Source: a methanogenic archaeon ISO4-H5
GTDB lineage: Archaea > Thermoplasmatota > Thermoplasmata > Methanomassiliicoccales > Methanomethylophilaceae
Assembly (NCBI GenBank): GCA_001560915.1
Contig: CP014214.1
Coordinates: 1,116,001-1,180,000 of the forward strand
Direction: 5' to 3'
DNA: 64,000 nt
The translations under genes were made by a program, and so were the position numbers. Below are positions 1,201 to 40,057 of the stretch, piece after piece (positions within the stretch are counted from its first letter, which is position 1; every line of letters starts with the position of its first letter). The notes beneath the pieces were generated by a model. The model was not told the DNA's origin. It did not search any database and saw nothing but the letters and a program-made list of their open reading frames with translations.

Positions 1201-1261
1201 TTGTCGGTTCACTGTCCTGGTGGTCTTATGTTACCTCATGCCAGGCTGGTATTTAGGTATT

Positions 1262-1282
1262 CCTACCAAGTTAATAGGTAGG
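1262..1282. promoter_or_regulatory. Inverted repeat upstream of cysteine desulfurase
   Basis: CCTACC (1262-1267) and GGTAGG (1277-1282) are separated by nine A/T-rich bases. The repeat lies 60-80 bases before the nifS-like start, next to a TATA-like CCTAAATACC on the minus strand. It could be an operator for an Fe-S or redox-responsive regulator. That role is inferred from position only. Confidence 0.35.
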
Positions 1283-1292
1283 TTTAACTGAG

Positions 1293-1323
1293 GTAAAAAA
1301 AATAAACTGCTCTGACCAAGCAG
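1293..1323 (-). terminator. Hairpin plus T-tract terminator
   Basis: On the minus strand CTGCT and AGCAG pair around a seven-base loop and are followed by a run of T (plus-strand A at 1295-1302). It lies directly after the 72-residue gene and fits an intrinsic archaeal terminator. Confidence 0.6.
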
Positions 1324-1329
1324 AATGAA

Positions 1330-1548
1330 TCACTCGTCGCGCAGAACAAGGTCGTCGGCGGCCTCTTCGGGATCGTCGGCCCAGTCGGGCTTCTCCTCTT
1401 CCTCTTGAGCGGCCTGCGCCTTGTACATCTCACGGATGCTGTACATGATGGCGCCTTTGAAAGCCTCCTCCACGGAGATTCCGAGTGTCTCGGCATAATA
1501 GTTGACCAGAGTCTCCTCTTCCTCATCGAGAGTAATCTTGACTTCCAT
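1330..1548 (-). CDS. Small acidic ribbon-helix-helix-like protein
   Basis: 72 residues. The N-terminus MEVKITLDEEEETLVNYYAE followed by LGISVEEAFKGAIMYSIRE has the pattern of a ribbon-helix-helix domain (short beta strand, then two helices), as in RelB/ParD-type antitoxins and small archaeal regulators. The C-terminal third is strongly acidic (EEEEKPDWADDPEEAADD). No toxin-like gene is adjacent, so antitoxin function is not supported. It lies between the thermosome and the cysteine desulfurase with its own terminator hairpin. Fold assignment is from pattern only. Confidence 0.65.
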   Translation of the reverse strand: MEVKITLDEEEETLVNYYAETLGISVEEAFKGAIMYSIREMYKAQAAQEEEEKPDWADDPEEAADDLVLRDE

Positions 1549-1564
1549 ATCGGCACCTTCACGG

Positions 1565-1590
1565 AAAAGTTGTGGGGGGTTGATCCCCCC
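1565..1590 (-). terminator. Terminator of the thermosome gene
   Basis: GGGGGG (1574-1579) and CCCCCC (1585-1590) form a six-pair stem. On the minus strand a short T-rich stretch (ACAACTTTTCC) follows. It lies just past the end of the thermosome gene. Confidence 0.6.
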
Positions 1591-1607
1591 GGTTAATGTT
1601 TACCCGA

Positions 1608-3230
1608 TCACATCGGGGGCATGCCTGCTGCTCCGCCCTGGGGAGGAACAGGGTTGGAACGCCTGGCGGCGATGACGTCGTCGATCCTGAGGATCATGTT
1701 GGCGACCTCGGTAGCGGAGTTGACTGCCTGGGTCTTGACCCTGAGAGGCTCAAGGACGTTGGCGGTCTTCATGTTCTCAGCCTCTCCGGAGTCGAGGTTG
1801 ATACCCATGTACTGTCCGTTCTTGCCGGTGTGGGCGTGCTTAAGTTTGATGATGACGTCGATGGGGTCGAGACCAGCGTTCTCGGCAAGGGTCCAGGGGA
1901 TGATCTCCATGGCCTTGGCGAACTTCTCGATGGCGAGCTGCTCCCTTCCGCCGACGGTTGCTGCGTATTTGGCAAGCCTGAGTCCGAGTTCGATCTCGGG
2001 TGCTCCTGCACCAGCGACGACCTTTCCGTCCTCGAGGGTGATTCCGACGGTGCGGACTGCATCGTTGATGGCCCTCTCGACTTCCTCGATGACGTGCTCG
2101 GTTCCTCCGCGGATGAAGAGGGTGACTGCCTTGGGGTTCTTACAGCCGGTAATGAAGGACATTCCGTCCTCTCCAATCTGCTTCTCCTCGACGAGTTTTG
2201 CCTTTCCGAGGTCCTTGGCGGTGAGCTCGTCGACGTTTCCGACGATGGTTGCTCCGGTTGCCTTGGCGATGGCCTCGATGTCGGACTCCTTGAGCCTCCT
2301 GTATCCCATGATGCCTGCCTTGGAGAGGTAGTGCTGGACGAGCTCGTCCATTGCTTTGGAAGTGTATACAACGTTGGCTCCGACGGACTTGATCTTGTCG
2401 ACCATGGCCTTCATGGAAGCCTCTTCCTCTGCGAGGAAGTCGTTCATCCTGGAGGGGTCGGTGATCTGGATCTGTGCGTCGATCTCGGTCTTCTTGACCT
2501 CGAGTCCGCAGTTGAAGAGGGCGATCTTGGCGTCCTCCATCTTCCTGGGCATCCTGGAGTGTACAAGCTCCTTGTCGACGACGACTCCCTGAACGATGTA
2601 GGTGTCTCTGATGACTCCTCCGACCTTCTTGGAAATCCTGATGTTCTTGGTGTCGACGCGGCCGTCGTCGCCTGCGACGAACTTAGCTGCCTTGACGATG
2701 AGGTCGGACAGGTGCTTCTTGTCCTCGCTGTCGCCGACTGCCTTTCCGGTAAGGGAGGTGTCTGCGATGATTCCGAGGGTCTTGTCGTTCTTGGCGTCGA
2801 CGGAGATCTCGTCGAGGATCTTGACTGCCTCAGCAGCTGCCATGTTGTATCCTGCGGTGATGACGGTGGGGTGGACGTTGGCGTTGATGAGTTCCTCGGA
2901 CTGTTTGAGGAGCTCTCCGGCGAGGATGACAGAGGTGGTGGTACCGTCACCGCACTCGGTGTCCTGGGTCTTGGCGACCTCAACGACCATCTTGGCGGCG
3001 GGGTGCTGTACGTCGATCTCCTTGAGGATGGTTACTCCGTCGTTGGTGATGACGACATCGCCGATGGAGTTGACCATCATCTTATCCATTCCTTTGGGTC
3101 CAAGGGTGGACCTTACGGACTCTGCGACTGCCTTTGCGGCGTCGATGTTGTTGAACTGTGCTTCTTTGTCTTTGCTTCTCTGAGTTCCCTCTTTGAAGAC
3201 GATGATGGGCTGGTTTCCGTTTCCGTACAT
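1608..3230 (-). CDS. thsA: Thermosome subunit (group II chaperonin)
   Basis: 540 residues, full length. ATP-driven protein folding in a double-ring cytosolic complex. Diagnostic motifs seen: LGPKGMDKMM near residue 44, NDGVTILKEI, and the nucleotide-binding GDGTTTSVILAGELL. The C-terminus ends in a short Gly/Met tail (GGAAGMPPM), as in other thermosomes. Transcribed alone: a terminator follows and an A/T-rich promoter region of about 100 bases precedes it. Long opposite-strand open frames over this gene are codon-bias shadows. Confidence 0.98.
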   Translation of the reverse strand: MYGNGNQPIIVFKEGTQRSKDKEAQFNNIDAAKAVAESVRSTLGPKGMDKMMVNSIGDVVITNDGVTILKEIDVQHPAAKMVVEVAKTQDTECGDGTTTSVILAGELLKQSEELINANVHPTVITAGYNMAAAEAVKILDEISVDAKNDKTLGIIADTSLTGKAVGDSEDKKHLSDLIVKAAKFVAGDDGRVDTKNIRISKKVGGVIRDTYIVQGVVVDKELVHSRMPRKMEDAKIALFNCGLEVKKTEIDAQIQITDPSRMNDFLAEEEASMKAMVDKIKSVGANVVYTSKAMDELVQHYLSKAGIMGYRRLKESDIEAIAKATGATIVGNVDELTAKDLGKAKLVEEKQIGEDGMSFITGCKNPKAVTLFIRGGTEHVIEEVERAINDAVRTVGITLEDGKVVAGAGAPEIELGLRLAKYAATVGGREQLAIEKFAKAMEIIPWTLAENAGLDPIDVIIKLKHAHTGKNGQYMGINLDSGEAENMKTANVLEPLRVKTQAVNSATEVANMILRIDDVIAARRSNPVPPQGGAAGMPPM

Positions 3231-3332
3231 GGATTACACTCCAGTTTTTATGAGATGAGTTATTTTGTTCTTCTATATAAAGTTATTTCAACCATTGGTT
3301 AATTTCGGAAATCTCCAGGCCAATTAAAGTGA

Positions 3333-3359
3333 GAAAAAGAACCCCGCATGCCCTGCGGG
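3333..3359 (-). terminator. Terminator downstream of methyltransferase operon
   Basis: On the minus strand CCCGCA/TGCGGG form a hairpin followed by a T-rich tract (plus-strand GAGAAAAAGA). It is the second of two tandem hairpins after the methyltransferase gene. Confidence 0.55.
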
Positions 3360-3377
3360 AGGGGTAAGTCGTTTGCG

Positions 3378-3394
3378 GGGCCGGAATCCGGCCC
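3378..3394 (-). terminator. G/C-rich hairpin after methyltransferase gene
   Basis: GGGCCGG and CCGGCCC are perfectly complementary around a three-base loop, ten bases past the methyltransferase stop codon. With the hairpin at 3343-3359 it forms a double structure ending the operon. Confidence 0.5.
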
Positions 3395-3403
3395 TGGAGG
3401 GAT

Positions 3404-4432
3404 TCATCCCTTGATGGCCTTCACCAGGGCCCTGATGTTGTCATCCGGGGTTCCGATGGGCACTCCGCATCCTGCCGAGATCACGTTGAATCCGGCGTCG
3501 CGGCTCCTCTTGGCGGCGGCCGCCACGTCCTCGGGGGTTCCCTTGAACAGCGGGAACGCGCATCCGACGTTTCCGACCATGCATCCGCGGTGGTTGGCTA
3601 TCTCGATGGCCTTCTCGGAAGGCACCTTCTCCTCGACGGAGATTCCGTCCACGCCTGTATCGAACATGTAGGGGATGATCGGCGCGGAATCTCCGCAAAT
3701 GTGGAGGATGGTGTGTCCCTTGAGGGATCCGAGACAGTCCTTCACGAACTGACCGGACTGTACGGGGAAATCGCTAGGTGCGAGGATATCGGTCGATGCC
3801 GACGGCTCGGACATCTGCACGACATCCGCTCCGGCGTCCAGGAGGGCCTGTCCGTAGGCCTTGCTGTAGGCGGAGATGGCCTTGGTCCACTTCTGCGCCC
3901 TCTCGGGCTCGGTCCACACCGAGTACACGAGGTTCTCGGTGTTGAGCAGGTGTCCAGTAAGGGTGAACGGTCCAGTGTTTCCACCGACCACGACGTAGTC
4001 CTCTCCGTGGGTCTTCTGCATGATGCTCATGGCCTCAAGAGTGGTCTTGATCCTTCCAGTCTTCAGGAACTCGTCCATGTCGGGGAGATCGTCGGGCTCA
4101 TCGTAGATCTTCTTCATAGGGTTGTAGTTGTAGCGGTGTCCCTTGAGCATGGGCGAGGACTTCTCTGTACCCATGTTGATGGGGCATCCGAAGGCCTCGG
4201 CCTCCTGCGTGAGGCAGAATCCTGCCCTCACCGACTCCAGGCCGAAGTAATCGGCCTGCGCGCATGCCAAAGTGGCCATCTTCTGGGGGTCGGAATGGGC
4301 CTCCGGCCACGATGCACCGCATGCCTTCATCATCCCGATGGTGTCGCAGGTGGTGAAGACAGCCACCGGCGGACGGTCAAGACTCTCCTGCTTGAGCGCC
4401 GCCAACACCCTTTCTCTGCATGACATTGCCAT
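3404..4432 (-). CDS. UroD-fold methylcobamide:CoM methyltransferase (MtaA/MtbA/MtsA-like)
   Basis: 342 residues from the ATG at 4432, which lies five bases after the corrinoid gene's stop. An upstream in-frame start at 4468 would overlap that gene. The family moves a methyl group from a corrinoid protein to coenzyme M through a Zn site of the type H-x-C...C; here the likely ligands are HICGD and the C-terminal SAGCGVP. It starts with the typical RERVLAALKQE..DRPPVAVF. It forms a two-gene operon with the corrinoid protein. No MtxB gene is beside it, which matches the two-component MtsA/MtsB arrangement. The substrate cannot be read from the sequence. Confidence 0.85.
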   Translation of the reverse strand: MAMSCRERVLAALKQESLDRPPVAVFTTCDTIGMMKACGASWPEAHSDPQKMATLACAQADYFGLESVRAGFCLTQEAEAFGCPINMGTEKSSPMLKGHRYNYNPMKKIYDEPDDLPDMDEFLKTGRIKTTLEAMSIMQKTHGEDYVVVGGNTGPFTLTGHLLNTENLVYSVWTEPERAQKWTKAISAYSKAYGQALLDAGADVVQMSEPSASTDILAPSDFPVQSGQFVKDCLGSLKGHTILHICGDSAPIIPYMFDTGVDGISVEEKVPSEKAIEIANHRGCMVGNVGCAFPLFKGTPEDVAAAAKRSRDAGFNVISAGCGVPIGTPDDNIRALVKAIKG

Positions 4433-4437
4433 TTCTA

Positions 4438-5076
4438 TCACACCTTCGAATTCACATAACTGACGCACTGCTGCGCATTCTCGTCCCTGTGGTCCGCACC
4501 GATCTCCTCTGCAAAGGCGTCGGTGGTAGGCGGTCCTCCGATGGTCACGATGACCTTGTCCCTGTAGCCGCTGTTGGCTATCAGTTTCACGGTGGCGGCC
4601 ATGTTGTCCATGGTCGGTGTCATGAGGGTGCTCAGGCAGACGACCTGCGAACCGTCTTCGAGCATCATCTTCTTGAATTCCTCGGGAGGCACGTCCTTTC
4701 CGGCGTCGTGCACCAGGAATCCGGCTGCGGTGAGCATGGTCTTCACAATGTTCTTACCGATATCGTGGACATCACCCTGCACCACGCCGCACAATGCATT
4801 CTTGCTGGTCAGGGATTCGTCCTTGGGGATGGCGGGGATCAGAACGTCCAATCCCTCGTACATGCTGTGCGCTGCGACCAGTACCTGCGGCAGATACATC
4901 TTGCGCTCAGCATAATTGTCTCCTATTACTCCCATCCCGACGACCAAACCTTCGTTGATCGCCCTGACGGGATCCATACCTTCAGAAAGTGCAGTCTCCG
5001 CTGCCTTCTTGGCCCTTGGAGGGTCGCAGGCGACAACGGCGTCGGCCAGCTCTTTCAGAATAGACTTCTCATCCAT
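4438..5076 (-). CDS. Methyltransferase cognate corrinoid protein (MtbC/MttC-like)
   Basis: 212 residues. It carries the methyl group on a cobamide between donor and the CoM methyltransferase. An N-terminal helical cap (about 1-85) precedes a B12-binding Rossmann domain with the base-off motif D-x-H-x-x-G, seen as GDVHDIGKNIV, and later STLMTPTMDNM and TIGGPPTT. It is the first gene of the operon with the UroD-fold methyltransferase. A TATA box at 5169-5178 lies about 95 bases upstream. Length and motifs match the methylamine-type corrinoid proteins better than MtaC. Confidence 0.88.
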   Translation of the reverse strand: MDEKSILKELADAVVACDPPRAKKAAETALSEGMDPVRAINEGLVVGMGVIGDNYAERKMYLPQVLVAAHSMYEGLDVLIPAIPKDESLTSKNALCGVVQGDVHDIGKNIVKTMLTAAGFLVHDAGKDVPPEEFKKMMLEDGSQVVCLSTLMTPTMDNMAATVKLIANSGYRDKVIVTIGGPPTTDAFAEEIGADHRDENAQQCVSYVNSKV

Positions 5077-30409: not shown

Positions 30410-32905
30410 ATGCAGAATGGTGATGTGGATTCCGGTGAAGACCTTGTGCCCTTGAACCTTTGGGGCAAATAGGATGATATCTGCCACCTTCTTGAGTATC
30501 ACATGATTGATACTGCTTCTGTGTGCACGGCGTTTCTCAAAAATGATTCTAAAACGAGATTCGCGCTCGTAGACACCTTGGGCGTATCCGAAGATAAAAC
30601 GATCGTACTGATGGAGTTCCTATGCGCCATCCATGACATTGGAAAAGTAAACTCGAAATTCCAATCCCTGGAAGACAGTATGATTAGGTACCGTCACGAT
30701 ATCGGGGGATATCTTGTGCTGACTCGTCATCTGATGCAACGGATAGAGCCGTTGTTTACTACATCTCCCCCAATCGACCGTAAACTCAAATCAAATCTCC
30801 GTACACTCCTCAGGTGTGCGGCGATGCATCACGGCAGTCCGAAGGGGTGGAGCAATGAAGAATATGAGGAATCTTTCCCACTGATGTTCGATGAGCAATC
30901 ACTGTCTGCATCGGAAACGGTACTAAGTCATATCGTGAAACTCATGCATCTCGGGGAGGATGTATTCGCCCATATTCTCGAATCTGAAGGGTTCAAAGAA
31001 TTCTCTACCTTAGCTGCAGGCGTTATAACTCTCTGCGACTGGATTGCTTCTGGAGAATTCAATTACTGCTCCGAACCTATGCCGTTGGAACTGTACAGAT
31101 CACGTTCAATAGCCCATGCGAATTAGTTATTCGCAGAAGATTGCCTCCATATAGAGAAAAAACCTGCTATAAAACCCGAATTTGAAGAGGTGTTCGGATT
31201 CAGACCCACACCAATCCAGCACACCTTGGCGAATATCGCAGCAGATTCTGCAAAGATGATCATAGTAGAAGATGCCACGGGTGCGGGGAAGACTGAAGCG
31301 TCATTGATCTATGCCCTGAACTGCTTATCCGAGACGGAAACCACGGGTATCACTTTCGCATTGCCAACTCGTTCCACATCCAATCTTATGTTCCTCAGGA
31401 TGAATTCCTATGCAGACAGCATCCTTTCCGAAAACAACTCGGTGACTCTCCAACACGGTACATCCAAAACATTCCTTCAGACCGAAGGGCTTGAACCGGA
31501 ACACTCCTGGGTCTGCGGTAAAAACAAAGCTCTCTTTGCGAACATCTCCGTGTGCACTGTGGACCAGGCACTCAGTGCTGTAATTCCGACAAGGTACCAG
31601 CCGTTGAAGTTGATTTCTCTGCTCCGTCACGTGGTAATCATTGACGAAGTGCACGCTTATGACCCCTACATGTTCAGACTGCTGTGCAGTTTGGTCCAGT
31701 ATTGCAAGTTGTATTCTATACCTCTCGTACTGCTCTCTGCTACAATCCCCTCGCGGATGAGAAAAAAGCTGATAGAAGCATACGGTTCAGAACATACAGA
31801 ACTCCGTGGGGAATATCCTTTGATTACGGTATGCTCCGGTAAAGAAGTATCACAGATTCCATGCGAGTGCTCCACCAGATCCATCCGGGAAATCCAATTA
31901 CGCTATGTGTCGGACGAGAACCTTGTTAAGAAGGAGCTCACAGATTTAGCAAAACTGGGATATCGGGTATGTTGGATCCGTAACACCGTAGACGATGCTA
32001 TCGAAGCATTCGATAATATCCCCGATGGCGAGTACGAGAAACTTCTCGTACACTCCAGATTTACGGTGCAGGACAGGACCGACATAGAACATCATCTCAT
32101 TGACCTATGCGGAAAAAAGAGCAAACCGAAAGGCCTTATTGTAATCAGCACGCAAGTAGTAGAACAATCCCTCGACATTGAATTCGAGAGGGTATATTCA
32201 GACCTTGCACCGGTGGATTCCCTGATTCAACGCATGGGTCGTGACCAGCGCTTCTGTGATTCTCCAATCCCTTGTGAATTTGTGGTCCACGGACCGCCTC
32301 TGAACAAGGAAATTGATGAAAACTGGTATTCGGATTATTTCACCCGCGCTGGATATGTTTACACGGATCACTGCATGCTGTATAACACAGCCTTGCTGAT
32401 GTCCAGACCTAAAATATCCATTCCCGCAGATTACCGTGAATTCATCGAATTTGCTTATTCCGAACCTGATGAAAACAGCCCGTTCCTGGAGAATCATCGT
32501 AAATTCAGAGAATCCTGTTCAGCATCCGTTTCGAATTCTCAACGCGTGATTCTGGATCCTGATTTGGGGTACGGAAACTCGCTTTCCGAGGAGTTCACCG
32601 ATAATCAATGGGATGCCATCGAAAAGGCTACCACCCGTGAAACCGACGATCGTACTGTACAGTGTTTACTGATGGTTGAAGGTGAGAACGGCCCCGCACC
32701 GATCTCCGGTTCTTTGGAAACCAGCCTTATAACACTTAAAAAGAAATACGTCCCTTCGCCGGAAACGGATGATTGCCTTTATTACGGCAAATGGAAATTC
32801 ATCGGAAAACTGAAGTTAGACCTAGTTTCGGATGGCAAAGGAAACCAGTACTGGGTAGCTCCGGGAATCAGATACTCAAGGAGGAAAGGTGCAGAGTATG
32901 TTTAA
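30410..32905 (+). CDS. cas3: Type I-E Cas3 helicase-nuclease with two in-frame UAG codons (predicted Pyl)
   Basis: 831 codons if UAG is sense. TAG occurs in frame at codon 21 (30470-30472) and codon 239 (31124-31126); otherwise the frame is open. The N-terminus before the first TAG, VPLNLWGK, and the sequence after it, DDICHLLEYHMIDTASV, align together with Cas3 (WGK...IHLLIYHCLDVAAVA in E. coli), so the TAG is inside conserved sequence. HD nuclease: H31, H75-D76 in CAIHDIGK, then MHHG. Helicase: DATGAGKTEA (K294), DEVH box (412-415), LLSATIP, QRMGRDQR. The second TAG is in the helical linker between HD and helicase. Reading UAG as a stop would leave only fragments. Overlaps the cas8e start. 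Alternative: a decaying gene, but both breaks are TAG and no frameshift or other stop is present. Confidence 0.87.
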
Positions 32906-34418
32906 CTTGATAAATGAACAATGGATCCGGGTAATCTGTAAATCCGGAAAAACACGCAAAATCGCGCCGTGGGAGATATCCGACAAAACGGATCCTCCTG
33001 TAAAACTAGCGTTTGCCCGCCCAGACTTCAATTCTGCGGTCACCCAGTTCCTGATCGGGCTTGTTCAGACAACTTATCCTTTGAAAGACGATGATGCCTG
33101 GCTGGACGTACTTGAGACCCCGATCTCAGCAGAGGAGCTCAAAAAGAGTATGGGCGCAGTGACTCAGTATTTCGAACTGAGCGGTTCAGAACATTCCTTC
33201 ATGCAGGAAAAAGGTCTGGCTACCCCGAAGAACGCCAAAGATATCCTTTCCATCCTGCTGACGACTCCCGGTGAAAACACACTTAAGCAAAACAAAGACT
33301 TTTTCATAAAGCGTACAGGTTCACGCGGCTGTTTATGTAAATCGTGCACCGCCGCTGCAATATATACACTTCAAGCACTTGCGCCAGTAGGCGGTGCAGG
33401 ATACAGATGCTCAATCCGCGGATCAAGCCCGTTGACCACCATGGTCGAGGGACCGGATCTCTATTCAACCGTGTTGCTGAACGTGCTTCCCACAAACCAT
33501 GTTCAAAACACAAACGCCAACAAACAGGTTTTCCCGTGGGCTCTCGGAAAGGTAGCATCACTGCCGCCTTCGGACAACAATTGGAATATGGTATACTGGA
33601 CCACAGAACGCAGAATCGAACTTGGAGAGGAAATCGATGGGATCTGTTCGATATGCGGTGAAGAAACCAGAGGTTTTGCTTCCTATCATGAATTAAACAA
33701 TGGCACCGAATACAAATCCTGGGAACACCCTCTGTGTCCATATTATCTCAAGAAGGATGAATTGATTCCAGCGCCTGTAAAAGAGGACATCAATCATCTC
33801 AACCAATGGACATACATGGTGTATGAAGATGTTTCTGAAACTGTACCTGCGAAAAGCATCCGTCATCTTCATTCTAACAGGACAGATATCCAAGAGATCC
33901 TGGGAGAGAATCAATTCAGAATCTGGATTTCCGGATATCAGAACAAGCAGGCTTTGCCTATTTCCTGGAAAGAGATGCACCAGCCGATTCTGCTCGACTA
34001 CTCCGATAAAGAAAAGGCTTCGTTCATGCTCACTATTCGCAAGACTATTGCCCTCGTCATGATGGGTTACTCGGATATGCAGCAAGCATTCAACAGACTT
34101 CTGGGGAAGAGGGTCTCGGACAACTCAGAGAAAAAACAGGGTCTACCTCAGAGTAAACCTGTGCCCCCTACCATTGCAGAGGAATATTGGAACCGTTGCG
34201 ACATGATGTTCAGACAACATCTGTCGGAAATGGAACATGCTGAATTGGATACGTTCCTGACAGAACGCATGGAGGATTTGAAAAAGATAGTACTGCAGAT
34301 TGTTGACGGCTACTCGGATACCCTTCCACTCGATTATTATTCCAATGTGGTCGAGGCCAGAAGGATCGTAATAAAGAGGATGTCCGTAAAATCAATGAGC
34401 GAGAGGATTAAGAAATGA
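32898..34418 (+). CDS. cas8e: Cascade large subunit Cas8e (Cse1/CasA)
   Basis: 506 residues from the ATG at 32898; a GTG at 32889 has better spacing to AGGAGG and is possible. Begins MFNLINEQWIRVICKSGK, the Cse1 N-terminus (LIDxxWIPV). Other family features: CLCKSCTAAAIYTLQALAPVGGAGYRCSIRG and a CSICGE knuckle. In type I-E this subunit recognises the PAM and recruits Cas3. Overlaps cas3 by eight bases and cse2 by four. Lower G+C than genes outside the island. Confidence 0.92.
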   Translation: MFNLINEQWIRVICKSGKTRKIAPWEISDKTDPPVKLAFARPDFNSAVTQFLIGLVQTTYPLKDDDAWLDVLETPISAEELKKSMGAVTQYFELSGSEHSFMQEKGLATPKNAKDILSILLTTPGENTLKQNKDFFIKRTGSRGCLCKSCTAAAIYTLQALAPVGGAGYRCSIRGSSPLTTMVEGPDLYSTVLLNVLPTNHVQNTNANKQVFPWALGKVASLPPSDNNWNMVYWTTERRIELGEEIDGICSICGEETRGFASYHELNNGTEYKSWEHPLCPYYLKKDELIPAPVKEDINHLNQWTYMVYEDVSETVPAKSIRHLHSNRTDIQEILGENQFRIWISGYQNKQALPISWKEMHQPILLDYSDKEKASFMLTIRKTIALVMMGYSDMQQAFNRLLGKRVSDNSEKKQGLPQSKPVPPTIAEEYWNRCDMMFRQHLSEMEHAELDTFLTERMEDLKKIVLQIVDGYSDTLPLDYYSNVVEARRIVIKRMSVKSMSERIKK

Positions 34419-34894
34419 CAGAAAACAAAAAGGATTTCGGAGAAGAGGTCTATTCCTGGTGGATTAAACTCCAAAAGGAACCGGGCGATCTTGCCAGACT
34501 CAGACGTCAGTCTGATGCCCTGGGCATAGAAAGCATAGGCTGTTTCTATGATCTGATTTCAGCCGTTGGCTATGTTCAGACAGATACGCTGGCATACATT
34601 GCGATGGCGATTTCTCATGTAGACGTAAACTCGCAGAAAAGTGCTGCGACCTTAATGGGGAAGAAACAGTCCAATTCCGACCATACCGTATCTGAGCTGA
34701 GATTCAACAAACTCATCTCATTGGATCTTGCTGATGCATCGAGAGAACTTGTGAGGATCCTCCCTCTCATCGACTCTGCCGCCGATGTCCGCAGCATGGC
34801 TACCGATCTCCGTTACTGGGACTCGGACAAACAGATTTCAAAGAAAAAATGGTTAAACGACTACTACACAGCAAACAGGAAGGAAACACAATGA
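34415..34894 (+). CDS. cse2: Cascade small subunit Cse2 (Cas11e)
   Basis: 159 residues. Helical protein with WWIKLQKEPGDLARLRRQSD and LRFNKLISLDLADASRELVRI, which match Cse2. It forms the belly of Cascade and contacts the target strand. ATGA-type overlaps join it to cas8e and cas7e. Confidence 0.88.
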   Translation: MTENKKDFGEEVYSWWIKLQKEPGDLARLRRQSDALGIESIGCFYDLISAVGYVQTDTLAYIAMAISHVDVNSQKSAATLMGKKQSNSDHTVSELRFNKLISLDLADASRELVRILPLIDSAADVRSMATDLRYWDSDKQISKKKWLNDYYTANRKETQ

Positions 34895-35982
34895 AATACA
34901 TACAGATTCACGAACTCGTATCGTACCCGGCAGCAAATCTTAACAGAGACGACCTCGGAAGGCCCAAAACCGTCAAAATCGGCGACAGTACCAGGCTTAG
35001 AGTCTCTTCGCAGAGCCTTAAGAGGGCCTGGAGGACCAGCAAGGTCATGAATGATGCGTTCCCCGTAATGGGCATCCGCACCAAGAAGCTCTCGGAAACC
35101 GTGGAAGCAGCCCTTGTTTCCGGCGTATCCCTTGCGGATTTCCTCGCTGGAAAGAATGTTGCCACCCGCCAACCTGTCAGCAAAGACATTGCAAAGAAGT
35201 ACGGAAAGGCAATCGACGATCTGTTCAGAGATACTAAGACCGCAGAGGATGCTGATTCTGACAATGGTGACGAGGGTAAGGCAAAAAAGAAACAGATTTT
35301 CCACTACTCGGATGCAGAACTGAAAAAAGTCGATGCAATTATGGAAGCTGTTTCCAAAGGAGAGAAACCCGAGATGAAGGACCTTCTCACTAACTCTTCC
35401 TTCCCCGTGGATATAGCTATGTTCGGAAGAATGGTTGCCAACGACAAGAGTTTCGACTGCGAAGCAGCTGTACAGGTCGCACACTCCTTCACTGTTCACA
35501 AAGCAATCGTAGAGGAGGACTATTTCACTGCAGTCGACGACCTCAACGATGAAGATGAGTCCGGAGCTGGACATCTCGGCGAAACCAGTTTTGGAGCGGG
35601 ATTGTTCTATAACTACATCTGCATCGATTTCGAACTATTGGTCAAGAACCTCGGATCCGAAGAACTTGCCCATACTGCAGTAAAGAAATTACTCGAGGCC
35701 TCTGCCACAGTTTCCCCCACCGGAAAACAGAACTCCTTCGCATCCAGGGCTTATGCCTCATTTGTCATGATTGAGAAAGGAGACAAACAGCCCAGGTCCC
35801 TTGCATCCGCATTCCTCAAGCCTGTCCGCGGTGATGACCTCCTGGCCGAGTCCATCAAAGCAATCAAGACCACCCAGGAGAACATGAACAAAGTCTTCGG
35901 GGAATGCTATGACGCCTGCTATGTCATGGATGTCTCCGCCGGAGAAGGATCCATGAATGAAGCTGGTGCCTTCCTTGACTGA
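34891..35982 (+). CDS. cas7e: Cascade backbone subunit Cas7e (CasC/Cse4)
   Basis: 363 residues from the ATG at 34891, preceded by AGGAAAC. A longer frame reaches into cse2 but lacks family sequence. Starts with IQIHELVSYPAANLNRDDLGRPKTV and RLRVSSQSLKRAWR, the Cas7e hallmark. Six copies coat the crRNA in Cascade. C-terminal G-x-G region present. Confidence 0.94.
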   Translation: MKYIQIHELVSYPAANLNRDDLGRPKTVKIGDSTRLRVSSQSLKRAWRTSKVMNDAFPVMGIRTKKLSETVEAALVSGVSLADFLAGKNVATRQPVSKDIAKKYGKAIDDLFRDTKTAEDADSDNGDEGKAKKKQIFHYSDAELKKVDAIMEAVSKGEKPEMKDLLTNSSFPVDIAMFGRMVANDKSFDCEAAVQVAHSFTVHKAIVEEDYFTAVDDLNDEDESGAGHLGETSFGAGLFYNYICIDFELLVKNLGSEELAHTAVKKLLEASATVSPTGKQNSFASRAYASFVMIEKGDKQPRSLASAFLKPVRGDDLLAESIKAIKTTQENMNKVFGECYDACYVMDVSAGEGSMNEAGAFLD

Positions 35983-36724
35983 ATCTGATGTCAAAGAATG
36001 TTTGATATTCCACATAGCGGGCCCGATGTGCAGCTGGGGTGAGTCGTCAGTAGGAAACTACCGGCCCACCTCCAGCCACCCTACCAAATCCGCTGTGGCG
36101 GGAATACTTGCCGCATCTCTAGGTATAGACAGGAATGATTCCGAAAGACAATCGAGCCTGTACTCCGATTACCAATACATCGTGGTCAGCACGGGTCAGG
36201 AAACAGAATTGATTGATTTCTCAACCGTCGAAAGTTCAGAAGAACCCAATGAAGAGAGATCGATTCTACCGCCCCGTTCTAGGGAATTGAACCGCGATAA
36301 ACGCAATACAATCCTAGTGGATCGCAGATACATCTGCAATGGATACTACTCTGTGATTGTTATTCCCGAGGGCACGCCGAGATACGGACTTAGAGAACTC
36401 AAGGATGCTTTGGAACATCCGCATTACGTTCCTTATCTCGGACGCAAATCCTGTCCTCTGGCGTATCCGATGTGTCCTTCCGTGGAAAAGCTGGATAATC
36501 TCAAGACAATCATCCTTAGTAAATCCCATATCCCGTTCAAATCAGACATGTTCTCTGATGCAGGTTATCCGAGAGAACCCGGCGCGCTCAGTGTGTTCTC
36601 CACCTGCAGACTGGATTCCCTGGGGGGATATACTCAGCATATCCGCCGTGACAACAACCCGGATCGCAGATCCTGGCAATTCTATGACAGATATGAGTAT
36701 GAATACCAGGTGGTGACTGAATGA
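35957..36724 (+). CDS. cas5e: Cascade subunit Cas5e (CasD)
   Basis: 255 residues. IFHIAGPMCSWGESSVGNYRPTSSHPTKSAVAGILAASLGI is the Cas5 N-terminus. It binds the 5' handle of the crRNA. The ATG at 35957 overlaps cas7e by 26 bases; a TTG about 15 codons later is an alternative start. Overlaps cas6e by four bases. Confidence 0.92.
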   Translation: MKLVPSLTESDVKECLIFHIAGPMCSWGESSVGNYRPTSSHPTKSAVAGILAASLGIDRNDSERQSSLYSDYQYIVVSTGQETELIDFSTVESSEEPNEERSILPPRSRELNRDKRNTILVDRRYICNGYYSVIVIPEGTPRYGLRELKDALEHPHYVPYLGRKSCPLAYPMCPSVEKLDNLKTIILSKSHIPFKSDMFSDAGYPREPGALSVFSTCRLDSLGGYTQHIRRDNNPDRRSWQFYDRYEYEYQVVTE

Positions 36725-37380
36725 GCCATTACTTCAGCAGGATTGCCCTTACCCCCGAAGGGGTGGATTACAAAATCCGTATGATGAGCCACCACAGCTA
36801 CGATCTCCACAAGGAGATGTGGAACCTATTCCCGGGAGAACCGGATGCCGACCGTAGTTTCCTTTATTCGATAATGGATGATGGAAAAACCGTACTGATG
36901 GTATCTGAACGTGAACCGGTGTTCAACAACTATTGGAGCGTGGAATCCAAATCCTATGATCCTGTGATTTCCGAGGGAGACTCTTTCAGATTCCGTATTT
37001 GTGCCAATCCGACTGTCGCGAACAGCGTTAAAGGAAAACATCAGAGACATGATGTAGTCATGAACCTCAAACGCAAAATGCGTGAAGAGGGTGTGGAACT
37101 GTCCCAGAATGAAATCGTACAGAGAGCTGTAACCGAATGGATGGTTAGAAAAGCAGGGCTCAATGGATTCTCCGTTGACGAGAACAGCCTATTGATCCAC
37201 AGCTATGAGAAGAATGAAACTTTCAAACAGCAGAACGGAAAGAAAATCGTTTTCTCGACCGCTACAATCGAAGGGAGTCTCACAGTAAAAGACAAAGATA
37301 AATTCAGAAAAGCTCTGTTCTGCGGGATAGGTTCTGCTAAAGGATTCGGCTGCGGAATGCTCATGATCAGACGTATATGA
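36721..37380 (+). CDS. cas6e: crRNA endonuclease Cas6e (CasE)
   Basis: 219 residues. N-terminus HYFSRIALTPEG and SHHSYDLHKEMWNLFPG match Cas6e (histidine of the catalytic region followed by W-x-L/F-F). The C-terminal glycine-rich loop GIGSAKGFGCGMLMI matches the G-x-G-x-x-x-G-x-G-L/M end. It cuts the hairpin in each repeat. Overlaps the Cas1/Cas2 remnant by four bases. Confidence 0.94.
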   Translation: MSHYFSRIALTPEGVDYKIRMMSHHSYDLHKEMWNLFPGEPDADRSFLYSIMDDGKTVLMVSEREPVFNNYWSVESKSYDPVISEGDSFRFRICANPTVANSVKGKHQRHDVVMNLKRKMREEGVELSQNEIVQRAVTEWMVRKAGLNGFSVDENSLLIHSYEKNETFKQQNGKKIVFSTATIEGSLTVKDKDKFRKALFCGIGSAKGFGCGMLMIRRI

Positions 37381-37874
37381 GCTGGATTGAACCAGTAAAC
37401 ATTCCTCTAAAGGATCGAAGCAGTTACATCTACATCGAACATTGCATCATTGATGTCCGTAACAGCGCTTTCGTAATGCAGGATTTAGAAGGGAACACGT
37501 TCGGTGCACCGCTAGGTATACTGGCCGGCCTCATGTTGGGGCCTGGAACATCTGTTACACATGCTGCTGTAAAACTGGCTGCCGATGTGCATTGCCTTCT
37601 GCTCTGGGTTGGAGAGAACGGGGTCAGGATATATTCAGCTGGTATGCCTGGAGGTAACGGGTGCGACCGCCTGTTGATGCAGTCCAAACATGCTTCAAAA
37701 CCGCCTGCATTTATCTGGAAGATTGTAACGGAAAACATCGGCAAAGGTTCTGCGGTTCTGATCTGTTCTACAACAAAATCAGAATTCGGTTTCGAAATCG
37801 AGATTTGCGGGGAACCGCAACGGGTTTTGGATGAAATCGATGGAATAAAGGTACTTAAACATAGATTCGTTTGA
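37377..37874 (+). pseudogene. Cas1e-Cas2e deletion chimera (adaptation genes collapsed)
   Basis: 165 codons, open frame. Residues 1 to about 105 are the N-terminal domain of Cas1e: IPLKDRSSYIYIEH, LGPGTSVTHAAVKLAADV, LLLWVGENGVRIYSAG and PGGNGCDRLLMQSK. From about residue 112, FIWKIVTENIGKGSAVLICS, then TKSEFGFEIEICGEP and LDEIDGIKVLKHRFV are the C-terminal half of Cas2e. The Cas1 catalytic domain (the positions of E141, H208 and D221 in E. coli) and the first half of Cas2 are absent. A single in-frame deletion of several hundred bases with ends near 37689-37715 explains it. The product cannot integrate spacers. No other cas1 or cas2 lies in the window. Confidence 0.88.
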
Positions 37875-37894: not shown

Positions 37895-40057
37895 GAGTTC
37901 CCCATATGCGTGGGGATGAACCGGTTTTCCAAACGATGATCGATCTACTTACATTGAGTTCCCCATATGCGTGGGGATGAACCGAAACCCGTCTCAAAAG
38001 CCAAGAAACCCGTCAAGAATTCCCCACATGCGTGGGGATGAACCGAGAATGAGAACACCTTGTGATGCTGGATTCGTGAGTTCCCCACATGCATGGGGAT
38101 GAACCGATTGTGGAATACATCGACTCGTATATGCCCAAGAGTTCCCCACACATGTGGGGATGAACCGAACGTCCTGCACCTGCTCTACGAACTTCCTTCA
38201 AGTTCCCCACACATGTGGGGATGAACCATCTCTCTCCAAAACGAAACCGTCACAGCTCACGAGTTCCCCACATGCGTGGGGATGAACCGCTCTGAGGGAG
38301 TTAAAGTCTCCAGGGAGGCCGGAGTTCCCCACGCATATGGGGATGAACCGGAAGTGGGAATGTGAGCCGTAATTGGGTTGCTGAGTTCCCCACGCATGTG
38401 GGGATGAACCGAAGACCCAGGTGAGAGTACCGGGTGGACTCGTGAGTTCCCCACGTATGTGGGGATGAACCGCAGATCGCAGACTACGGTGACACCATCC
38501 AGTTAAGTTCCCCACTCATGTGGGGATGAACCGTCATGCGTCGCAGTGCTTACCATCTCATCATGGAGTTCCCCATGCATATGGGGATGAACCGAGAATC
38601 CCAAACCGAAGAAAACCGAAGTCAAAGAGTTCCCCACGCATGTGGGGATGAACCGAATGATGGCAGAGGAGAACGGACGTCCTATTTGAGTTCCCCACGC
38701 ATGTGGGGATGAACCGTAATACACGCCAAACATAAGAAGTCCGACACCATGTTCCCCACAAATATGGGGATGAACCGGCGTCCGAAGGAGAGGACCACAT
38801 CAGGGCCATGAGTTCCCCACGCATGTGGGGATGAACCGGAAAAATACGGGAAGAAATTTGCAATGCAAGTGAGTTCCCCACGCATGTGGGGATGAACCTA
38901 TCTGCATGAAGGTGCTGAACATCCGGCCCATGAGTTCCCCACGCATATGGGGATGAACCGCAGATCAGGCGCACCTTCATCAGCCCCGATGAGAGTTCCC
39001 CACGCATGTGGGGATGAACCGATTCGGCTTGTTCAGAAAGCGAATCCAAATATGAGTTCCCCACGCATATGGGGATGAATCGAAGACCGCAATCTACACC
39101 GCAGGCGCATATGTGAGTTCCCCACGCATGTGGGGATGAACCGGTCAAGGGCGAGGGCCTAAAATTCGCCTACCTGAGTTCCCCACGCATGTGGGGATGA
39201 ACCGCACGCCACCACCTCCGGAGACGCCTGGTCCGAGAGTTCCCCACGCATATGGGGATGAACCGGGAAAGTAAGGAGATCGTGAAAAGGTATCTGGGGG
39301 TTCCCCACGCATGTGGGGATGAACCGATGACGGAGATACTCTCCAGGAGAGGTACTCCGAGTTCCCCACGTAGGTGGGGATGAACCGTAGCCGTTGAACC
39401 ATGTGATGGTGTTGCAGGCGAGTTCCCCACGTAGGTGGGGATGAACCGGGAATTGAAAACGTAAGGCAGGGTTACGGATCGGGTTCCCCACGTAGGTGGG
39501 GATGAACCGGTCTTGTACTGTCCCTCGAACGGTTCGATGTGAAGTTCCCCACGCATGTGGGGAGGAACCGATATTGATTCCGAGCTTGCTGTATGCGGTG
39601 CCAAGTTCCCCACGTATATGGGGATGAACCGACTGGTGTCAGGGTACAGACCTCTCACGCAACGGGTTCCCCACGTAGGTGGGGATGAACCGCACAGACT
39701 GTGAAAGCCATCATCCGTGAGCGCGAGTTCCCCACATGCGTGGGGATGAACCGGCCGCTAGCCAGCACCCTCCCCAGACCGCTTAGAGTTCCCCACTCCT
39801 GTGGGGATGAACCGTCGTGTGTGGCAGTAGAAACCATTTCGTCATGGTGTTCCCCACACAGGTGGGGATGAACCTTAATGGCCGAAACCCCAATGTCCGG
39901 TACGCGGGAGTTCCCCACGTATGTGAGAATGAATCGCCTCGCAGCACCCCCTATAACAGGGGGCCATGGGTTCCCCACGTATGTGGAGATGGGTCGAACC
40001 CGAGTCCACGCTTACACTGAGCAAGGATGAGTTCCCCACTCATATAGGGGCACAATG
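37895..40057 (+). CRISPR. Type I-E CRISPR array, 36 repeats and 35 spacers
   Basis: 29-base repeats (GAGTTCCCCA-N6-TGGGGATGAACCG) alternate with 32-base spacers at a strict 61-base period; only spacer 34 is 31 bases. The stem CCCCA/TGGGG and the 5' handle ATGAACCG match the I-E crRNA orientation, so transcription is on the plus strand. The last three repeats (39908, 39968, 40029) are degenerate, placing the old end on the right and the leader end next to the cas genes. The six bases between the stem arms vary strongly among repeats. Spacers 11 (38534-38565) and 32 (39815-39846) derive from the same protein-coding site. Many apparent ORFs across the array are artefacts of the repeat. Confidence 0.98.

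What the first reader, a model, noticed from the sequence alone, without database searches (positions are those of the whole stretch)
38534..39846. Two spacers hit the same viral protein site with only synonymous differences
Reverse complements of spacers 11 (38534-38565) and 32 (39815-39846) both encode HDEMVSTATH in the same frame and the same register. They differ at nine of 32 bases and every difference is synonymous, including AGC versus TCT for serine. This shows two independent captures from diverged relatives of one virus or plasmid at exactly the same protospacer, implying a conserved PAM and strong constraint on that peptide. It also shows that the spacers match a real coding gene on a named strand.
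Basis: seen in the sequence. Interest (0 to 1): 0.85.

Follow-up and report, generated by a model that had tools for sequence, protein, structure and literature searches.

The report
Two CRISPR spacers, one viral site
A rumen methane-producing archaeon stored the same spot of a probably viral gene twice in its CRISPR memory, taken from two distantly related versions of that gene; this is real, but related archaea show the same kind of repeat capture, and the virus itself has not been found.

Summary
Spacers 11 and 32 of the 35-spacer type I-E array of methanogen ISO4-H5 match at 23 of 32 bases in the same register. All nine differences are synonymous if the minus strand encodes HDEMVSTATH. Nine random changes keep a peptide in 2 of 200,000 trials. 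Seven of the nine codons that could vary do vary, so the donors were deeply diverged homologues, not strains. Duplication and drift inside the array is excluded.

I could not find the target gene in IMG/VR, GTDB species genomes or 389 genomes of the phylum. The PAM, viral origin and function of the peptide therefore remain inferred. The strand rests mainly on one serine codon.

Among 532 spacers in 14 type I-E arrays of the order there are six same-register diverged pairs, all within one array, and none among 127,736 between-array pairs. A relative's spacer hits three diverged viral capsid genes at one conserved site. About one pair per 2,250 is roughly what PAM-limited random capture from one virus lineage would give, so no hotspot is required.

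Adaptation is dead here: cas1 and cas2 are fused by a deletion. Of these arrays, only this one has hypervariable, partly inverted repeat loops.

The parts
38534..38565 (-). Spacer 11 (the newer of the two, nearer the leader); minus strand encodes HDEMVSTATH
39815..39846 (-). Spacer 32 (the older, near the trailer end); minus strand encodes HDEMVSTATH with nine synonymous differences
38505..38533 (+). Repeat ahead of spacer 11; last base G (38533) corresponds to the PAM-derived base of type I-E
   Evidence: rule for the last repeat base from PMC10011333
39786..39814 (+). Repeat ahead of spacer 32; last base G (39814)
   Evidence: PMC10011333
37895..40057 (+). CRISPR array, 36 repeats and 35 spacers, repeat GAGTTCCCCACGCATGTGGGGATGAACCG; last three repeats degenerate
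   Evidence: published as the only CRISPR region of ISO4-H5 (PMC5011839)
37875..37894 (+). Short leader (20 bp, CTTCTATA motif shared with G096, G097, G078)
30503..32905 (+). Cas3 (HD 30503-31126, helicase 31190-32905) joined by reading one in-frame TAG, a candidate pyrrolysine codon
   Evidence: TAG in cas3 reported in PMC5011839
32889..34418 (+). Cse1 (Cas8e), large subunit of the type I-E effector
   Evidence: PF09481 E 1.7e-63
34415..34894 (+). Cse2
   Evidence: PF09485 E 7.8e-11
34849..35982 (+). Cas7 (Cse4)
   Evidence: PF09344 E 1.2e-94
35957..36724 (+). Cas5
   Evidence: PF09704 E 3.1e-28
36721..37380 (+). Cas6e
   Evidence: PF08798 E 1.5e-43
37377..37874 (+). In-frame fusion of the Cas1e N-terminus (model 3-105 of 269) to the Cas2e C-terminus (model 41-86 of 87): remnant of a deletion that removed the Cas1 C-terminal domain and the start of Cas2

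Best explanation
A lineage of ISO4-H5 met two deeply diverged members of one family of mobile element (most likely viruses of Methanomethylophilaceae) at different times, while its type I-E system could still adapt. Each time Cas1-Cas2 took the same PAM-flanked 33-bp site out of a conserved gene. The codons around the site kept the peptide HDEMVSTATH, and probably the PAM, while third positions changed. The second capture (spacer 11) restored a match that the old spacer 32 had lost at nine positions. Choice of the same site needs no more than random choice among a limited number of PAM sites in one virus lineage. Later a deletion fused cas1 to cas2 and froze the record. Shown: the homologous site, the same register, the synonymous pattern, and the loss of complete cas1 and cas2. 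Inferred: viral nature, PAM, coding strand, timing, and that the second capture restored protection.
For: Nine of nine differences synonymous, chance 2 in 200,000. Same register, 23 of 32 bases, next best pair 17. Same pattern in other type I-E arrays of the order: G037 spacers 26/47 (28/32, DVLCFIPETL, synonymous only) and 11/13 (29/32), G035 49/74 (27/32, RHRLTQSSEA, synonymous only), G043 3/18 (30/32), G125 14/46 (8 of 10 residues); all offset 0, all within one array, none among 127,736 between-array pairs. The PAM-derived base is identical in all four pairs where it varies. Direct model case: spacer 2 of G090 hits the start of the major capsid gene in three diverged IMG/VR contigs at 30, 28 and 26 of 32 bases in the same place. 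Complete cas1 and a separate cas2 exist in the nearest relatives G078, G096 and G097, while ISO4-H5 has only the fusion.
Against: No target sequence was found anywhere searched. IMG/VR yielded only three contigs of the one viral family that spacers of this host family were seen to hit, so absence is weak evidence. The two donors could be paralogues in one element.
Confidence: 0.82

Rival explanations
1. Both spacers came from one element that carries two diverged copies of the gene, or a repeated domain, captured once each.
For: The same peptide with saturated silent sites would also fit old paralogues. No target genome is known to exclude it.
Against: Paralogues so old at silent sites rarely keep 10 of 10 residues (inference). 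Spacers 11 and 32 lie 21 units apart, so the captures were separated in time. Most pairs in relatives are closer (27-30 of 32), as expected of virus relatives.
Confidence: 0.1
2. The site belongs to a plus-strand gene encoding SCVAV(L/E)TISS, with one residue change, rather than to HDEMVSTATH on the minus strand. (A variant of the best explanation that changes only the strand and peptide.)
For: Frame 0 of both strands shares third-codon positions in a 32-nt spacer, so six third-position changes are silent on both strands.
Against: It needs a radical Leu/Glu change by three base changes in an otherwise unchanged peptide, and only 8 of 64 codons there would by luck keep the minus peptide. The two IMG/VR hits to the plus peptide are no more than chance would give.
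Confidence: 0.1
3. One spacer was duplicated within the array and the copies then drifted.
For: An exact spacer duplication does occur in G090 (16 and 20). The repeat loops of this array are very variable.
Against: Unselected drift would not give nine silent and no replacement changes (2 in 200,000). At the rate seen in the repeat loops the chance of no first or second position change is about 3e-6.
Confidence: 0.01
4. The site is a true capture hotspot, or recapture was steered to it by priming from the older spacer. (An added mechanism on top of the best explanation.)
For: Six recaptures at offset 0 in 5 of 14 arrays. Mismatches at positions 6, 18 and 24 fall on crRNA bases that type I-E does not read (general knowledge of Cascade structure), so spacer 32 may still have primed.
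Against: The rate, 1 in about 2,250 pairs, is of the order given by random choice among roughly 1,250-5,000 PAM sites of a 20-40 kb virus. Priming is known to give several new spacers from the strand of the priming site (PMC10011333), not specifically the same site.
Confidence: 0.12

Closest known systems
Type I-E CRISPR-Cas (E. coli type) and its spacer acquisition rules (PMC10011333)
   Same: 29-nt repeat, 32-nt spacer, last repeat base from the PAM, Cse1-Cse2-Cas7-Cas5-Cas6e operon ahead of the array
   Different: cas1 and cas2 reduced to a fused remnant, cas3 with an in-frame TAG, repeat loops hypervariable
Near-identical spacer pair sp59/sp63 and diverged smacovirus protospacers of Ca. 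Methanomassiliicoccus intestinalis (PMC6336856)
   Same: Same order of archaea; two almost identical spacers in one genome, and the same protospacer present at various identities across related viruses
   Different: There the virus behind many spacers is known and the effector is a hybrid of type I-A and I-B (PMC4153887); here the two copies are far more diverged (23 of 32) and the target is unknown
Type I-E arrays of relatives G035, G037, G043 and G125 (this study)
   Same: Diverged same-register spacer pairs within one array
   Different: Those arrays have intact cas1 and uniform repeat loops

Membership tests
Type I-E CRISPR-Cas | Cse1 (Cas8e) and Cse2 present with Cas7, Cas5, Cas6e | tested here: met
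Type I-E CRISPR-Cas | 29-nt repeat with stem and about 32-nt spacers, 61-bp period | tested here: met
Type I-E CRISPR-Cas | Cas3 with HD and helicase domains | tested here: met
   Both domains present, joined in one protein only if one TAG is read through
Type I-E CRISPR-Cas | Complete Cas1 and Cas2 (needed for adaptation, not for interference) | tested here: not met
   Only a Cas1 N-terminus fused to a Cas2 C-terminus; no other Cas1 in the genome. The locus is therefore a type I-E locus that has lost adaptation.
Repeat capture of one protospacer from diverged relatives of an element | Two spacers in the same register with homologous, non-identical sequence | tested here: met
Repeat capture of one protospacer from diverged relatives of an element | Protospacers found in two related elements with the same PAM | tested here: inconclusive
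   No target found for this pair; one conserved site in three related viral contigs was seen for spacer 2 of G090 only, with ACT, GAT and AAT ahead of it

The most novel reading that the evidence does not exclude
Recapture at one protospacer is not random: the older, mismatched spacer, or a property of the site, steers Cas1-Cas2 back to exactly the same place, so that arrays update a memory in situ. This may be favoured where third-codon positions coincide with the crRNA bases that are not read.
Probability: 0.1. Interest if true: 0.65.

Novelty: new member of a known kind. Interest (0 to 1): 0.36.

Why it matters
Pairs of spacers with only silent differences show, without any viral genome, that a strain met diverged members of one element family. 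They also name a conserved peptide (HDEMVSTATH) by which an unsampled rumen archaeal virus could be recognised. Peptide-level comparison of spacers finds pairs that base-level comparison would easily miss. Because adaptation is lost, the ISO4-H5 array is a frozen record of past encounters.

Tried and rejected
Exact and relaxed peptide patterns in IMG/VR gave nothing. The plus-strand pattern gave two hits, no more than chance. GTDB genome contigs gave nine hits in unrelated bacterial reading frames. The order (147 genomes, 2 mismatches) and phylum (389 genomes, 3 mismatches) gave only the array itself. blastn of spacer 11 against phage records gave chance hits only. DVLCFIPETL of G037 was not found in IMG/VR, and in the family only in its own array. 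Terminase relatives (84 loci, 0.98 Mb) showed no match to ISO4-H5 spacers above a reversed control; a pattern search with 3 mismatches of 11 whole viral records also failed. Regions around integrases of ISO4-H5 held no hit for any of the 532 spacers. phmmer of the padded peptide against the PDB gave nothing. I first suspected a lost leader in ISO4-H5, but relatives with intact cas1 have similarly short leaders.

Full report
What the window is. The window is bases 1,116,001-1,180,000 of a single 1,937,883-base contig. Its array position matches the published array of methanogenic archaeon ISO4-H5, a ruminal member of the Methanomassiliicoccales (genome 1,937,882 bp, one CRISPR region at 1,153,894-1,155,995; PMC5011839). 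The identification rests on these matching numbers.

Spacers 11 and 32 are at the stated coordinates, differ at nine of 32 bases in the same register, and both give HDEMVSTATH on the minus strand with silent differences only. Of the 595 pairs in the array the next best shares 17 bases, and the next best by peptide shares 5 residues. Nine random changes keep some peptide in 2 of 200,000 trials. Seven of the nine differences fall on positions divisible by three (p = 0.006); the other two belong to the AGC/TCT serine pair. Seven of the nine codons that could vary do vary, so the silent sites are close to saturated and the donors were deeply diverged.

A caution on strand. In a 32-nt spacer, frame 0 of the two strands shares its third positions. 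The plus strand therefore also reads nearly unchanged (SCVAV L/E TISS). The minus strand is preferred because it needs no residue change, and only 8 of 64 codons at positions 16-18 would keep its peptide by luck. I put the minus strand at about 90% (judgement).

It is not a single oddity. I collected 14 type I-E arrays of the order (532 spacers, 13,510 within-array pairs). Six pairs are diverged copies in the same register: ISO4-H5 11/32, G037 11/13 and 26/47, G035 49/74, G043 3/18, and G125 14/46. The last is the weakest, at 8 of 10 residues. All are within one array; none occurs among the 127,736 between-array pairs. One further pair, G096 1/8, overlaps with a shift of five bases. In the four pairs of relatives where the PAM-derived base varies, both members have T. 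In ISO4-H5 both have G, which is nearly uninformative because 33 of 36 repeats end in G. The rate, about one per 2,250 pairs, is of the order that random choice among 1,250-5,000 PAM sites of a 20-40 kb virus lineage would give, if most spacers of an array came from one lineage. No hotspot is required.

A direct example in relatives. A terminase from a genome of the same family (G092) led to three related IMG/VR contigs (L029, L030, L031). Spacer 2 of G090 matches the first codons of their major capsid genes at 26, 30 and 28 of 32 bases, and spacer 7 of G090 and spacer 14 of G083 hit contigs of the same group. Reversed spacers gave nothing above 24 of 32. The bases ahead of these protospacers are ACT, GAT, AAC, AAT and AAT. 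The gene was called major capsid from its sequence and its place after terminase and portal-like genes; it was not run against a family library. This shows that tailed viruses of this host family carry one protospacer in several diverged versions. It does not show that such a virus is the target here. A capsid profile found only these three contigs in IMG/VR, so the absence of the ISO4-H5 target says little.

The target remains unknown. All failed searches are listed under tried and rejected. The function of the peptide is therefore not assigned.

The system can no longer adapt. The gene after cas6e (37377-37874) is an in-frame fusion of the first ~105 residues of Cas1e to the last ~46 of Cas2e. 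No other Cas1 was found in the genome. The nearest relatives by Cas7 (57-74% identity), Cas6e (50-56%) and repeat sequence are G078, G096 and G097 in another genus, which have complete cas1 and a separate cas2. Both captures therefore predate the deletion. Effector genes appear complete, and cas3 is continuous if one TAG is read as pyrrolysine, as reported (PMC5011839). Interference may still work; this was not tested.

Most likely history (inference). An early capture gave spacer 32. Later a relative with the same residues but different codons mismatched it at position 3 of the seed and at several other places. A new capture of the same site gave spacer 11. Then the adaptation genes were lost. 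Whether spacer 32 primed the second capture cannot be told.

Known or new. Repeated capture of one site is known in kind: in the same order PMC6336856 reports the near-identical spacer pair sp59/sp63 and protospacers at graded identity across smacoviruses. The present case is a more diverged and cleaner example. I score it as a new member of a known kind.

A side finding. The repeat loops of this array vary at 54 of 198 places while the flanking stem and handle vary at 2 of 627, and several loops are exact reverse complements of others. (The script printed 3 of 627; the table gives 2.) The 13 other arrays have uniform loops apart from their oldest ends. Because spacers 11 and 32 show no replacement changes, this is not general decay of the array; a process limited to the hairpin tip, or recombination with an array of the other orientation, is more likely.

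Noticed in passing
37895-40057: Repeat loops (repeat positions 11-16) vary in 54 of 198 places over 33 repeats, while positions 4-10 and 17-28 vary in 2 of 627. Some loops are exact reverse complements of each other (ACGCATGT/ACATGCGT, ACGCATAT/ATATGCGT), as if the hairpin tip had been flipped. The 13 other arrays have uniform loops apart from their oldest ends, though relatives G078 and G096 differ by exactly this flip.
   Followed up: partly
37377-37874: Cas1-Cas2 in-frame deletion fusion, not mentioned in the passages of the genome paper that were read.
   Followed up: yes
31124-31126: In-frame TAG between the HD and helicase parts of Cas3, a candidate pyrrolysine codon (reported for this gene in PMC5011839).
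   Followed up: partly
L123 (G090), spacers 16 and 20: Exact duplicate spacers in the array of G090, a sign of segment duplication within an array.
   Followed up: no
L122 (G096), spacers 1 and 8: Two spacers match at 22 of 27 bases with a shift of five, the only shifted overlap seen in 14 arrays.
   Followed up: no
L029, L030, L031: Three IMG/VR contigs with terminase and an HK97-like capsid gene, hit by spacers of G090 and G083: likely viruses of Methanomethylophilaceae.
   Followed up: partly
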